Part shown: positions 6,752 to 49,446 of the stretch, piece after piece | Layout of the letters: each line of letters starts with the position of its first letter | How positions within the stretch are numbered: position 1 is the stretch's first letter | Assembly: GCA_020086605.1 (NCBI GenBank) | Contig: JACBWW010000008.1 | Coordinates: forward strand, 17,467,558 to 17,531,557 | DNA from: Lanius collurio | Taxonomy: Eukaryota; Chordata; Aves; Passeriformes; Laniidae | DNA length: 64,000 bases | Reading direction: 5' to 3' | Notes under the pieces: model-generated | Databases searched by the model: none | The model's input: only the letters and a program-made list of their open reading frames with translations | Told to the model about the DNA's origin: nothing | Position numbers and translations under genes: made by a program

Positions 6752-7066
6752 ACAGGCTGTTGCAATGGGGATAACTTGCAGCAGGAGCTTTTCGGCAAGG
6801 CGAGTAGGAAGGAAATACAAAGCGATATTTTTTAGATGTTGATGGATGTTTATTTCCCTCCAGCCCCATCATGGCCAAGGTCCCATGGCCGACTGCCCTC
6901 CCAATCATGAGACTACCCCCTTCTTCCTGGGCCCAAGGAGCCCCCAGCAACCAGTCAGAAGACAGGCACAGGCCACACATGACTTGGGGACAGGGACAGG
7001 GACAGACCTGTACACTCCAGGGTCCCTCCCTGGGACCTTGGAGGGAGAGGTACGTCAGCAACAGGC
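6752..7066 (-). mobile_element. Solo ERVK-type LTR with 6-bp TSD
   Basis: The LTR itself spans 6758-7060 (303 bases) on the minus strand. It is bounded by a perfect direct repeat, acaggc, at 6752-6757 and 7061-7066. A 6-bp duplication is typical of class II (ERVK/betaretrovirus-like) insertions. It is plainly homologous to the LTRs at 46691-46979 and 49135-49440 and, in the opposite orientation, 15087-15381. Shared blocks include 'tagatgttgatgg', 'tgtttatttccct', 'gagactaccccctt' and 'cagaagacaggcaca'. The absence of internal sequence indicates a solo LTR left by LTR-LTR recombination. Confidence 0.88.
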
Positions 7067-15080: not shown

Positions 15081-15387
15081 ATGTTACGTGGAGGTGCCTC
15101 TCCCCTGCAATCCTGGGGGGAGGGACCCTGGAAGGTACGAGTCTGTCCCCGTCCCGGTTCCCATATCACATGTGCCCCATACCTGTTCCTGGTTGGGTGG
15201 TTTGGGTGCCTGGGGCGGGGAGGAGGGAGGAGGGTCCTGGGAGGAGTCTGCTTGGGAACTCCTGCCATGCGGCTGGAGAAATAAAATAATCCCTGAACAT
15301 CTACAAAAATACCGCTTCATCTGTCCTTCCAGCTCCATCACTGTCTTATATATTGTTGTAAGGATTCCCCGCACTACAACAATGTTA
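15081..15387 (+). mobile_element. Solo ERVK-type LTR with 6-bp TSD (plus strand)
   Basis: The LTR spans 15087-15381 (295 bases). Perfect direct repeats, atgtta, lie at 15081-15086 and 15382-15387. It belongs to the same family as the LTR at 6758-7060 and the provirus ends at 46691-49440, but points the other way. Corresponding blocks are 'gtacgagtctgt', 'gaaataaa', 'aacatctac' and 'ctgtccttcc'. The first base of the usual TG terminus is mutated to C. It adjoins the dispersed repeat that starts near 15395. Confidence 0.82.
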
Positions 15388-46300: not shown

Positions 46301-46690
46301 TAATTCCCCCTTTTTCTCCTTTGAGGAGCATTTTTTTGTCTTGTCCACTCTATGATCTTACCTTTGATGACATCCCCTGCCTAATATGCTAGATATACTA
46401 CATCTAACCTTAAAAAAAATGCAACCATTTTAAACTATTCCGTCACCCAAAAGTAGTCTCCTTTGATCAAATAAAATATTTCTCTATTCTTTTCTTCAGA
46501 TAGCTAATGATTAGCTTAAAATTAACTTGGCCAAAACTGACCTCCTTTCAATCCTTTGCTAACTTCCACGCTTTTCTTAAGTACTGATCACACCAGTACA
46601 ATTGTATTCTGTTACTCTGGTTCATAGCTGAACTGGAATTTTTAACACTTCTTTCTCACTTTCTCTGCGTACCTACCTTCAGCCATGTTT

Positions 46691-46979
46691 TGTTGCAATG
46701 GGGAATTCTTACAACAAGTATAAGATAGCAATGAACATAGGAAGGAAATATGAAGTGAAATTTGGTAGATGTTGATGGTTGTTTATTTCCCTTCAGCCCC
46801 ATCATAGCTGAAGTCCCATGGCCGACTCCCCTCAAAATCATGAGACTACCCCCTTCTTCCTGAGCCCCCAACAATCATTCAGAAGACAGGCACAGGCCAC
46901 ACATGACATGGGGACAGGGGCAGACTCGTACACTCTGGGGTCCCTTTCCCCTGAGACCTCGTGGACAGGTACCTCAACA
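46691..46979 (-). repeat. 3' LTR of the provirus
   Basis: 289 bases. On the plus strand it runs from 'tgttgcaatgggg' to 'acctcaaca'. 'tgtttatttcccttcagcc' marks the R/polyadenylation area in reverse. It pairs with 49135-49440 and is homologous to the solo LTRs at 6758-7060 and 15087-15381. Confidence 0.85.
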
Positions 46980-46984
46980 ATTCA

Positions 46985-46996
46985 CCCCTTCTTTTT
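46985..46996 (-). other. Polypurine tract
   Basis: On the minus strand this reads aaaaagaagggg, five bases before the 3' LTR. That is the expected place and composition for the plus-strand primer site of a retrovirus. Confidence 0.6.
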
Positions 46997-47205
46997 AAAT
47001 AAAAGGAACATTGGAAACAGCTGGATAAACATAACAAAACAATTTCAAAAGAAGAGAAGCCAATATCTTGAGTCCCCAAATGTCCAAATAGATTTTCTAT
47101 GAAGCATCTTAGGTCTGGCAGAACCCTCTGAACATGCTTTGTGGGGAAAATGAGGCAGGAAAGGGTTTCTTCCATCTGTACCTGTTGGACTCTAAACAAT
47201 AACAA
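46997..47205 (-). pseudogene. Possible env transmembrane-tail remnant
   Basis: Just upstream of the polypurine tract, a minus frame contains a hydrophobic, cysteine-containing segment (a 'VLLCLSSCFQC' core) followed by basic residues and running on into the LTR. Betaretroviral Env proteins end with a membrane anchor and a short Cys/basic tail in this position. The match is one of position and composition only, and nothing upstream resembles the rest of Env. Confidence 0.3.
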
Positions 47206-47834
47206 TTAATTTCTTCCCTCCCTCCTTTTTATCCCCATCAGCATTGCAAAGGGGTTCCTGGCAAACAGATGTGAGGAGAGCCAGGGATGCAAATACGCAT
47301 TGGGTATATAGTGGGGAGAGAAGGGCATGGGGTAAAAGGGAAAGGTAGGATGGGGAAAAGGACAGGGATTATGGGTATACTGTCTAGGGTTGCTGTGATT
47401 TGGAGCATATCTACTACCCTTCACAGGAACACCCCCAGGGCCTGTAACACATGCTGCTTATGGACCTTTTCTTCCTTGTACAATTTCAAACTCTACTTGT
47501 TCTCCCTCTCCTAAGCTTGGAACATGCTTTTTGGGGTTATTTTTTATAATGCTAGATTTCTGCACAAATATATCTTCCTTTGTATCATGTCTAATTATGA
47601 AACTGTAGTTATTCTTTATGTTGTACCATTTCACTGTCCCCCAAACTTTATCTATGATACTTTCTTCTTCTTTTTGTGTCACTGATGTTTGTTGCTTCTC
47701 TGTGTTCCTGCTTTCACTTTCAGTTTTGCTCACTCTCATGCCGGGGCTGCTGCTGTAGGGGTCTGAGCGCTCCCACCGCCTGGTTCTGGCTTCCCAGGGC
47801 TGCCTCTGGGGCTGTGTGGGCCAGGCCGCGCCAT
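47206..47834 (-). pseudogene. YBX2-like: Intronless Y-box protein-like gene captured by an ERV
   Basis: The minus frame 47458-47739 carries a cold-shock domain. 'DKVWGTVKWYN' is at residues 30-40, a degraded RNP1 (NYSFI; GYGFI in intact Y-box proteins) at 44-48, and TKEDIFV at 53-59, followed by the Y-box-specific KNNP at 66-69 and an EGEQVEFEIV strand. A TAA at 47458-47460 breaks the frame, and beyond it the same frame continues 'VTGPGGVPVKGSRYAPN', which from memory is the YBX2 form rather than that of YBX1 or YBX3. Upstream, an ATG at 47832-47834 in good context opens a Pro/Gly/Ala-rich stretch like a Y-box N-terminus, but in another frame (a probable frameshift near 47738). Y-box proteins bind mRNA and YBX2 stores germ-cell transcripts. 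Vertebrate Y-box genes split this domain over several exons, and here it is continuous. The C-terminus is short and proline/aromatic-rich, without the usual basic islands. It is probably non-functional. Confidence 0.75.
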
Positions 47835-48604
47835 GGCGCTTCGCTCTGCTGGCTCCTCAGCCGCCTCTGGCCACAGCCCGCCTGCCGCCACCTCTGCCAG
47901 GCTCCCACGTGGCTGCCTGGGCTCGATGCGGCCCCGTGCTGCACCATCCTGTTAACTGGGCTGCCCCGGTGGCCTCACATGGCTTCCCCTTGCCAGCACC
48001 GCTGCGGCTCTTGCGTGTCTCAGGGCGAACACCGACGGGCCCGCGCCACTGCGCTGCTCCTGGCTCCAATCCCGCCGCCACCGCTCTTGCCACCGGCCCC
48101 ACTCCCGCCGTGCCTGGCTGTGGGGGGTTATCAGCTGCCCACTGCTTAATTCTGTGGCGAGCTTGCTTCTTAAGCCTCGGAATATTCTAGACCATTCACA
48201 ACCAGTCTAATATTCCTTCGACTGAGCAGCCCCACCTAAGCCAGTGTTAATGACAGCTGTCCCCAGAGCAGAAGTTGAGAACAGAAATACAGCTCATACC
48301 TCCTTGATGTTAAGTCATTTATTCCCTCTGTCCTGGGGGGGAACAGAGCACCCGACCTGGGCAGCAGTCGGCGAGGTAAGAGGGCTGGGCTTTCCCCCCT
48401 GCTGGCTTTATCAGAGACAGGGGGAAAGGGGATACCAGGGGCGCAGACGGGACAAACAACCAACCACATCAGAGCCTGGGTGGCTTGAACCTAAGATAGA
48501 CTTGGCTCAGTCACATGACAGGGATCTGGCCCAGAGGGGCGGGGGCCCAGGGGGGTCCACCGCAACACCTGGCCTCACTGGCTCTCCCACACGCGGGAGC
48601 TCCC
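47835..48604 (-). other. GC-rich proviral insert of unknown origin
   Basis: This segment between the gag-like remnant and the Y-box part is much richer in G/C than its surroundings, especially at 47835-48120. Several frames are open on both strands (e.g. 47857-48102 minus, 48236-48469 minus, 48244-48849 plus) and none has a recognisable domain. The part nearest the Y-box sequence could be its 5' UTR, captured with the gene. 48180-48500 includes an aataaa word on the minus strand and may be from a different source. Confidence 0.4.
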
Positions 48605-49022
48605 TCACCACTGCCCGCAGTGCACTGGGTGCCCACAGCTGGGGCCGTGCTCTGGGGCAACGGAGGAGCCCACTGCAACTCGCGCACTGCTCAACAACAT
48701 GTTCGCTGCTAAAACAGCAGCGGGACACAGCCAGTATTGCTCAACAGTCTCTGAAATTAGGCAATATTCACGGAAATAGTTTTGCATTGGCATATATTTT
48801 GATTCAGGAATTAATTGTGTCCAAACATTCTTCCAAAAGTCTTTGGTAAGAATCAAATCCCAAGAAACATAGAAGAAGTTTTTAAACAACCATGCCAGGA
48901 AGTGTCTTAGTGTCTTTTTGAGCTTGAATTAAGCTAAAATCTAAATATCGCTGTTCAAGAACCTTTTTAAGTTTAAGGTAAGTGTCTCTTTGTAGTTCAG
49001 AGAGCCATGAGTCTTTCCATGA
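48605..49022 (-). pseudogene. gag-like (matrix region) remnant, frameshifted
   Basis: Downstream of the leader, two overlapping minus frames (one from about 49022 to about 48890, the other 48605-48889) encode lysine-rich and aromatic-rich stretches such as 'ELQRDTYLKLKKVLEQ' and 'KDFWKNVWTQLIPES'. Their spacing of helices and Trp residues recalls the N-terminal matrix part of class II ERV Gag. A frameshift separates them, and the second frame runs into the GC-rich insert. The identification is from position and general resemblance, not a firm motif. Confidence 0.4.
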
Positions 49023-49071
49023 ATCGTTCAGAGATGGGACAGAAAAACGAAAGCAAGAAGAGATATCCAGA

Positions 49072-49081
49072 GTTTACTCAC
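49072..49081 (-). promoter_or_regulatory. Splice-donor-like site in the proviral leader
   Basis: On the minus strand this reads gtgagtaaac, a near-consensus 5' splice site about 50 bases past the 5' LTR, where retroviruses place the donor for spliced transcripts. Use is not shown by sequence alone. Confidence 0.35.
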
Positions 49082-49114
49082 AAATCACCGAATCACTTTC
49101 TCCAGGGATCATTC

Positions 49115-49132
49115 ACCAGCATTCTCTGGCCA
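49115..49132 (-). other. Candidate primer-binding site
   Basis: On the minus strand the 5' LTR ends ...gcaaca, followed by two bases and then TGGCCAGAG. TGG is the universal start of a tRNA-complementary primer site (the tRNA CCA end). I cannot match the rest to a specific tRNA, and it may be mutated. Confidence 0.35.
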
Positions 49133-49134
49133 TT

Positions 49135-49440
49135 TGTTGCAACAGGCATAACTTGCAACAAGAGCTTTCAGGAAGACGAGTAGGAAGGAAATATGAAGCG
49201 ATATTTCTATAGATGTTGATGGATGTTTATTTCCCTCCTGCCCTGTCATGGCCAAGGTCCCGTGGCTGACTGACCTCACAATCACAAGACTACCCCCTTC
49301 TTCCCGAGCCTGGGGAGCCCCCAACAACCAGTCAGAAGACAGGCACAGGCCTGTGACACATGACGTGGAGATAGGGACAGGGGCAGACTCGTACACTCCA
49401 GGGTCCCTTCCCTGGCACCTCAGGGAGAGGTATCTCAACA
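49135..49440 (-). repeat. 5' LTR of the provirus
   Basis: 306 bases. On the plus strand it runs from 'tgttgcaacaggc' to 'tatctcaaca'. It shares 'tagatgttgatgg', 'gactaccccctt', 'cagaagacaggcacagg' and 'gcagactcgtacactc' with the 3' LTR and the two solo LTRs. Confidence 0.85.
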
Positions 49441-49446
49441 ATGTTT

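What the first reader, a model, noticed from the sequence alone, without database searches (positions are those of the whole stretch)
47206..47834. A Y-box (cold-shock-domain) mRNA sequence captured inside an endogenous retrovirus
Seen: a minus-strand cold-shock domain, and beyond an in-frame stop a 'VTGPGGVPVKGSRYAPN' continuation, lie strictly between two LTRs that share a 6-bp TSD and point the same way. Known: vertebrate Y-box genes split this domain over several exons, so an intronless copy implies a reverse-transcribed mRNA. Bird LINEs (CR1) rarely copy host mRNAs, while LTR-mediated retroposition is documented in animals. Inferred: an ERV in the germ line packaged and copied a Y-box transcript, probably YBX2, which is itself germ-cell expressed. 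I know of no described Y-box-transducing bird retrovirus.
Basis: partly seen in the sequence, partly recalled or inferred. Interest (0 to 1): 0.9.

Follow-up and report, generated by a model that had tools for sequence, protein, structure and literature searches.

The report
Retroelement family carrying a Y-box gene
The window holds one decayed copy of a small retrovirus-like element that is repeated at hundreds of places in what is likely a songbird genome, and whose only protein joins an unknown front domain to an RNA-binding type (Y-box cold-shock) domain, likely captured from a host gene and likely used by the element to handle its own RNA.

Summary
Window 46691-49440 is an LTR element (6-bp TSD ATGTTT, sense minus) with a Y-box cold-shock domain inside (PF00313, E 1.5e-14). 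It is one old copy of a multicopy family: two capped searches of the window's own 1.1-Gb genome give 259 distinct places (most not read one by one). 18 of 20 DNA-picked copies share one plan of about 2.3 kb: LTR, leader, N-terminal domain, linker, cold-shock domain, tail, LTR. 13 of 150 cold-shock places lie in open frames of 504-509 codons; the 7 I read hold all four protein parts in ONE frame. New Caledonian crow has the same fusion in UniRef. dN/dS of DNA-picked copies against a young copy is 0.18 (N-terminus), 0.22 (CSD), 0.32 (tail); shifted sense frames give 0.63-1.46. The 19 element CSDs tested form one clade apart from cellular Y-box proteins (support 97), so one ancient capture is likely. 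Most likely mechanism: a protein in Gag position whose Y-box domain binds the element's own RNA, helping a pol-less element use a helper. RNA binding, cis action and helper are inferred. Source paralogue: leaning YBX2, unresolved.

The parts
46685..46690 (.). target site duplication ATGTTT (copy 1)
   Evidence: sequence; (TG..CA ends with matching 6-mer)
46691..46979 (-). 3' LTR of the element (sense is minus)
46980..46996 (-). polypurine-tract-like stretch next to the 3' LTR
   Evidence: read; similar A/G-rich stretches stand before the 3' LTR of other copies
46997..47205 (-). 3' untranslated stretch shared by the family
   Evidence: 'post' piece matched in 20 of 20 copies
47206..47397 (-). 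Pro/aromatic-rich tail of the fusion protein; the PTFPFYP core is shared with crow proteins P0002 and P0003
47398..47661 (-). Y-box homology: cold-shock domain plus VTGPGGVPVKGSRYAPN; in this copy interrupted by one TAA, and the residue at the RNA-contact position His87 is Gln
47662..48112 (-). GC-rich linker, part next to the CSD (frame broken in this copy)
48119..48567 (-). nested solo LTR-like insert of another family, TG...CA, 6-bp TSD CCTGGC (48113-48118 and 48568-48573)
   Evidence: read; the 48308-48570 piece matched 0 of 20 other copies
48574..48703 (-). GC-rich linker, part next to the N-terminal domain
48704..49031 (-). N-terminal domain (about 110 aa, Gag position; approximate ends), frame broken in this copy
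   Evidence: compared with the open copies
49111..49134 (-). primer-binding-site region directly after the 5' LTR, with a TGG start
   Evidence: other copies
49135..49440 (-). 5' LTR of the element
49441..49446 (.). target site duplication ATGTTT (copy 2)

Best explanation
The window copy is a decayed member of a 2.3-kb LTR retroelement family, likely without any reverse transcriptase of its own, whose single protein fuses an unknown N-terminal domain to a likely captured Y-box cold-shock domain, a domain that would bind the element's own RNA so that a still unidentified helper retrovirus likely copies it. Shown by calls: the common LTR-to-LTR plan, intact 504-509-codon frames, low dN/dS, one clade of element cold-shock domains, and presence of the four residues that stack on RNA in Y-box proteins. 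Inferred: spliced mRNA of a Y-box gene was joined behind a Gag-position N-terminus once, before the lineages of this bird and of crows parted. Inferred: selection persists because the protein acts on the RNA that encodes it (cis preference); a protein acting freely in trans would not keep its own copies' frames under selection. Inferred: the Y-box domain takes the place of a nucleocapsid, binding and protecting element RNA in germ cells and bringing it into helper particles.
For: Multicopy: 40 of 40 scored DNA hits, the window among them (1062 first-look candidates), 150 of 150 scored CSD hits over the Pfam cut-off (1213 candidates), 150 of 150 scored N-terminal-domain hits (1272 candidates); 41 of 150 CSD places have a listed N-terminal place 0.9-1.6 kb upstream on the same strand, wrong-strand or downstream control 0, union 259 places. 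Plan: 18 of 20 DNA-picked copies hold all parts in order between LTR matches, with the LTR directly before the leader, in loci of 6-9.5 kb; LTR pairs in 22 of 24 copies, K2P 0.029-0.147, strict 6-bp TSD in 10 of 24, plus the window's own. One frame: 13 of 150 CSD places in frames of 504-509 aa; 7 of these 13 read, 7 of 7 with N-terminus, linker, CSD and tail. Selection: omega in 7 open copies 0.33 N-terminus, 0.62 linker, 0.21 CSD, 0.50 tail; DNA-picked copies versus L030 0.18 (19 copies), 0.22 (21), 0.32 (21); shifted sense frames 0.63-1.46. Cross-species: crow proteins P0002, P0003 (24 members) and P0004. RNA contacts W65/F74/F85/H87: all four in 15 of 15 CSD-picked copies and 3 of 3 crow proteins and in 16 of 21 DNA-picked copies; residues named in PMC7226217 (passages). 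One clade, support 97.
Against: No RNA-binding, expression or mobilisation evidence. The N-terminal domain has no Pfam or PDB relative that I would trust, so 'Gag' rests on position only; the structure model was too poor to use (mean pLDDT 33.6). No helper was identified; a Gag_p10 search of the genome did not complete. could find LTR pairs only within about 3.7 kb, so absence of longer copies rests and 24 copies in all. The codon-position test on DNA-picked copies alone is mixed: internal branches p 0.0029 (N-terminus), 0.042 (CSD, position 2 low but position 3 not above position 1), 0.3 (tail), and terminal branches are non-uniform too (p 0.0065, 0.015, 0.02). The tail omega interval among open copies includes 1 (0.21-1.21). 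CSD-picked copies are biased towards conserved CSDs, the four contact residues included; in DNA-picked copies those sites are kept in 18, 21, 20 and 19 of 21, but 47 of 78 CSD sites are kept at least as often as the lowest of them. Reverse frame rc1 also gives low omega (0.30-0.35), probably because it shares degenerate sites.
Confidence: 0.6

Rival explanations
1. One reading: one ERV packaged and reverse-transcribed a YBX2 mRNA, leaving a single processed copy between its LTRs.
For: Spliced Y-box sequence between LTRs with a TSD.
Against: Same plan in 18 of 20 other copies, 259 places, in-frame fusion, selection.
Confidence: 0.03
2. The Y-box domain is kept for another job: packing element mRNA into silent, stable germ-cell mRNPs, promoting translation, or hiding it from silencing, with no role in particle packaging.
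For: Y-box proteins package, mask and stabilise mRNAs in germ cells (PMC7226217 passages); RNA contacts are kept.
Against: Does not by itself explain the retained N-terminal domain (omega 0.18).
Confidence: 0.25
3. The compact copies are internal-deletion descendants of a full retrovirus that carried the Y-box fusion together with pol and env.
For: LTRs, 6-bp TSD and TGG-start primer site look retroviral.
Against: In 18 of 20 loci of 6-9.5 kb the LTR stands directly before the leader; pairs found span at most 2896 bases, but that search reached only about 3.7 kb; 24 copies in all.
Confidence: 0.2
4. The frames are preserved because some copies were domesticated by the host.
For: Intact frames and low omega.
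Against: The signal lies between many dispersed copies; the other 6 read open copies are 90-96% identical to L030 in the N-terminal domain although they lie on different contigs.
Confidence: 0.05
5. A LINE-made processed Y-box pseudogene inserted into a provirus.
For: Intronless.
Against: No poly-A and no own TSD seen; same neighbouring pieces in other copies.
Confidence: 0.01

Closest known systems
Y-box binding proteins (YBX1/YBX2/YBX3)
   Same: Cold-shock domain with W65/F74/F85/H87 and a VTGPGG-type extension
   Different: No C-terminal domain with alternating charged clusters (described in PMC7226217, passage); instead an unknown N-terminal domain and a Pro/aromatic tail; intronless; element CSDs 50-72% identical to YBX2 while YBX1 and YBX2 are 92-93% identical there
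Acute transforming (gag-onc) retroviruses (recalled)
   Same: Host coding sequence fused behind a Gag-position N-terminus in a defective element
   Different: Germ-line family of hundreds of copies; RNA-binding type instead of signalling cargo; homology of the N-terminus to Gag unproven
Non-autonomous LTR retrotransposons with captured gene pieces, e.g. plant elements (recalled; rice/sorghum survey PMC3726574 seen only in the listing)
   Same: Short, pol-less, LTR-bounded, carries host exon sequence
   Different: One long fusion frame with the mark of purifying selection, shared by two bird lineages
LINE-1 ORF1p (recalled)
   Same: Proposed role only: RNA-binding protein acting in cis
   Different: No sequence relation claimed or tested; LTR element, different domain

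Membership tests
Y-box / cold-shock domain proteins (PF00313) | CSD above Pfam cut-off | tested here: met
   54.1 bits versus cut-off 27; 74.3 bits in L030
Y-box / cold-shock domain proteins (PF00313) | RNA-stacking residues W65, F74, F85, H87 | tested here: met
   15 of 15 CSD-picked copies and 3 of 3 crow proteins; 16 of 21 DNA-picked copies, window has H87 changed to Q
Y-box / cold-shock domain proteins (PF00313) | YBX-type C-terminal domain | tested here: not met
   A human YBX2 C-terminal query matched element places only within its first 47 residues; tail is Pro/aromatic-rich
ERVK-like LTR retroelement (class label recalled) | TG...CA LTRs, 6-bp TSD, TGG-start primer site, purine tract | tested here: met
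   6-bp TSD in 10 of 24 copies, primer-site and purine stretches
ERVK-like LTR retroelement (class label recalled) | encodes a related reverse transcriptase | tested here: not met
   no room between the LTRs of the copies read; helper relation not tested
gag-onc type transducing retrovirus | host gene fused to Gag sequence | tested here: inconclusive
   fusion shown; N-terminus has no Pfam or credible PDB Gag match
non-autonomous LTR retrotransposon | LTR-bounded multicopy element without pol | tested here: met
   for the copies read
non-autonomous LTR retrotransposon | mobilised by a helper | not tested
   no helper identified; the one search for it did not complete

The most novel reading that the evidence does not exclude
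A retroelement lineage replaced the nucleocapsid with a stolen germ-cell Y-box domain: a minimal 'cold-shock Gag' that acts in cis, letting a pol-less element outcompete for helper particles for tens of millions of years in songbirds, and possibly preserving the trace of a YBX2 gene no longer found in this genome.
Probability: 0.35. Interest if true: 0.93.

Novelty: new variant of a known kind. Interest (0 to 1): 0.85.

Why it matters
Host gene capture by retroviruses is usually known as short-lived oncogene transduction (recalled). Here an RNA-binding type domain became the core of an element's only protein, spread to hundreds of places and bears the mark of selection, which makes it testable how a pol-less LTR element can keep a protein for its own RNA. 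Crow copies lie in UniRef as 'Uncharacterized protein'. Eight library searches that could have met such an element in print showed none, judged by titles and beginnings of abstracts; the library lacks most subscription papers.

Tried and rejected
Related DNA in viral contigs: none by tblastn. Rfam: nothing in the window. G-to-A hypermutation as the cause of CSD divergence was considered by eye and dropped because many differences look like transversions; not computed. N-terminal domain identity: Pfam and PDB searches gave nothing credible; one search listed a weak Vezatin match (E 0.11) in P0004; one search listed 60 of 186 weak hits (best E 0.0086), nearly all on query residues 155-233 (linker), many of them tagged constructs, taken as chance. 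Structure model of crow P0003: pLDDT 33.6, not used, no fold search made. Host YBX2 search with a human C-terminal query: YBX1, YBX3 and other places, the ones I could match by coordinates being element copies. Gag_p10 search of the genome to find a helper: seven requests, none answered (79, 81, 83, 86, 88, 90, 93). Zebra finch LTR paper PMC6523648 searched for five terms, 0 hits. Paper search for YBX2 loss in birds: two papers listed, neither on that by title.

Full report
What is there. On the minus strand the window carries an LTR element at 46691-49440 with TG...CA ends and a 6-bp TSD ATGTTT. The cold-shock domain at 47458-47856 scores 1.5e-14, with YBX1/YBX2 as best solved relatives. The Y-box extension VTGPGGVPVKGSRYAPN follows after one in-frame stop. 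A second, unrelated solo-LTR-like insert (48119-48567, TSD CCTGGC, read) has since gone into the linker, which is why the window copy is 2.75 kb long.

It is a family. Searching the window's own genome (1.097 Gb, 2132 contigs) with the Y-box DNA returned 40 of 40 scored hits at 78-100% identity from 1062 first-look candidates, one of them the window itself. PF00313 gave 150 of 150 scored hits above cut-off from 1213 candidates. The N-terminal domain gave 150 of 150 from 1272. Cross-matching the two capped lists, 41 of 150 CSD places have a listed N-terminal place upstream on the same strand (median 1011 bases), with none in the wrong orientation; together they make 259 distinct places on 66 contigs. 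The lists are capped, so family size is underestimated; on the other hand most places were not read, and a few may be unmerged haplotypes. Of the CSD-picked places I fetched 15, and 15 of 15 carry further element parts.

Plan of the element. Of 20 DNA-picked copies, 18 have LTR, leader, N-terminal region, linker, CSD, tail, 3' stretch and LTR in order; L018 lacks the parts before the linker, L028 lacks leader and N-terminal region, and in L014 the 3' LTR is cut short. Of 24 copies tested, 22 have an alignable LTR pair, K2P 0.029-0.147, and 10 show a strict 6-bp TSD; the window's own was found separately. The region after the 5' LTR starts TGG in most copies and resembles the complement of a tRNA-Ala 3' end (tRNA recalled, not tested). 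The copies read leave no room for pol; could see pairs only up to about 3.7 kb, looked at whole loci of 6-9.5 kb.

One protein. 13 of 150 CSD places lie in frames of 504-509 codons and 16 of 150 N-terminal places in stop-free frames of 499-509. In the 7 that I read, the frame runs from the N-terminal domain (about 110 aa; helical in a model of too low confidence to rely on) through a GC-rich linker (about 240 aa) and the CSD to a Pro/aromatic tail. Only the CSD has a known family above its cut-off. Three New Caledonian crow UniRef proteins have the N-terminal domain and the CSD, two of them the tail as well; P0003 stands for 24 sequences (taxonomy).

Selection. Among 7 open copies omega is 0.33 (0.15-0.71) N-terminus, 0.62 (0.47-0.86) linker, 0.21 (0.07-0.54) CSD, 0.50 (0.21-1.21) tail. 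To avoid picking by protein score I compared DNA-picked copies with young copy L030: 0.18 in 19 copies, 0.22 in 21, 0.32 in 21, every copy at or below 0.52; among themselves these copies give 0.36, 0.45 and 0.53. Reading the same alignments in shifted sense frames gives 0.63-1.46; of the reverse frames, rc1 is low too (0.30-0.35), the others 0.52-1.67. A parsimony test by codon position on DNA-picked copies alone is weaker and mixed; with all copies, internal branches have few second-position and many third-position changes in the CSD (57, 34, 99) and N-terminus (35, 17, 55). Against host YBX1 exons 4-5 dN is 0.21-0.34 with synonymous sites near saturation or beyond. By substitutions alone a 504-codon frame would stay open by chance with probability 0.35, 0.095, 0.035 and 0.010 at 1.7, 3.6, 5 and 8% change, so openness of a young copy alone is weak evidence; the dN/dS is the stronger one.

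Origin. The 19 element CSDs tested (15 CSD-picked copies, the window, 3 crow proteins) form one clade apart from YBX1, YBX2 and an aphid Y-box protein (97% ultrafast bootstrap on 88 residues, LG+G4). Crow P0002 branches first (93), and crow P0003/P0004 lie among copies of this genome with moderate support (67-86). One capture before the two lineages parted is the simplest reading (inferred). Host YBX1 has introns between exons 3, 4 and 5 and YBX3 between exons 4 and 5, so a spliced transcript was copied. YBX2 is favoured by P0002 and by the APN end, opposed by the Tyr at position 99 in four rows; no YBX2 was found here with a human query.

Mechanism. The four residues that stack on RNA bases (PMC7226217, passages) are all present in 15 of 15 CSD-picked copies and 3 of 3 crow proteins and in 16 of 21 DNA-picked copies; 47 of 78 CSD sites are about as well kept, so these four do not stand out. 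A pol-less element that keeps its frame under selection must gain from its own protein; the simplest way is that the protein binds the RNA that made it. I infer that it helps that RNA into helper particles; stabilising or masking it in germ cells is the main rival. HIV and HTLV-1 are reported to use or be modulated by cellular YB-1 (PMC6040738, PMC10487795; titles and beginnings of abstracts in the listing), so use of a Y-box protein by retroviruses is plausible.

Age. With a songbird neutral rate of about 2-3e-9 per site and year (recalled), LTR distances of 0.029-0.147 mean roughly 5 to 37 million years. The window copy is at the old end.

Noticed in passing
window 48119-48567: Nested solo-LTR-like insert of another family (TG...CA, TSD CCTGGC) in the linker of the window copy.
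   Followed up: partly
window 6758-7060: Solo LTR of the same family, 6-bp TSD ACAGGC.
   Followed up: yes
window 15115-15382: More divergent related LTR on the opposite strand, about 67% identical; no TSD found.
   Followed up: partly
L029: Two element copies lie next to each other in tandem-like order, sharing an LTR-like stretch.
   Followed up: no
L034 and L035 (G000 C42 and C40): Nearly identical copies on two contigs, and twin hits on C45 and C46: possible unmerged haplotypes in the assembly.
   Followed up: no
G000: No YBX2 gene found with a human C-terminal query, while YBX1 (C64) and YBX3 (C9) are present.
   Followed up: partly
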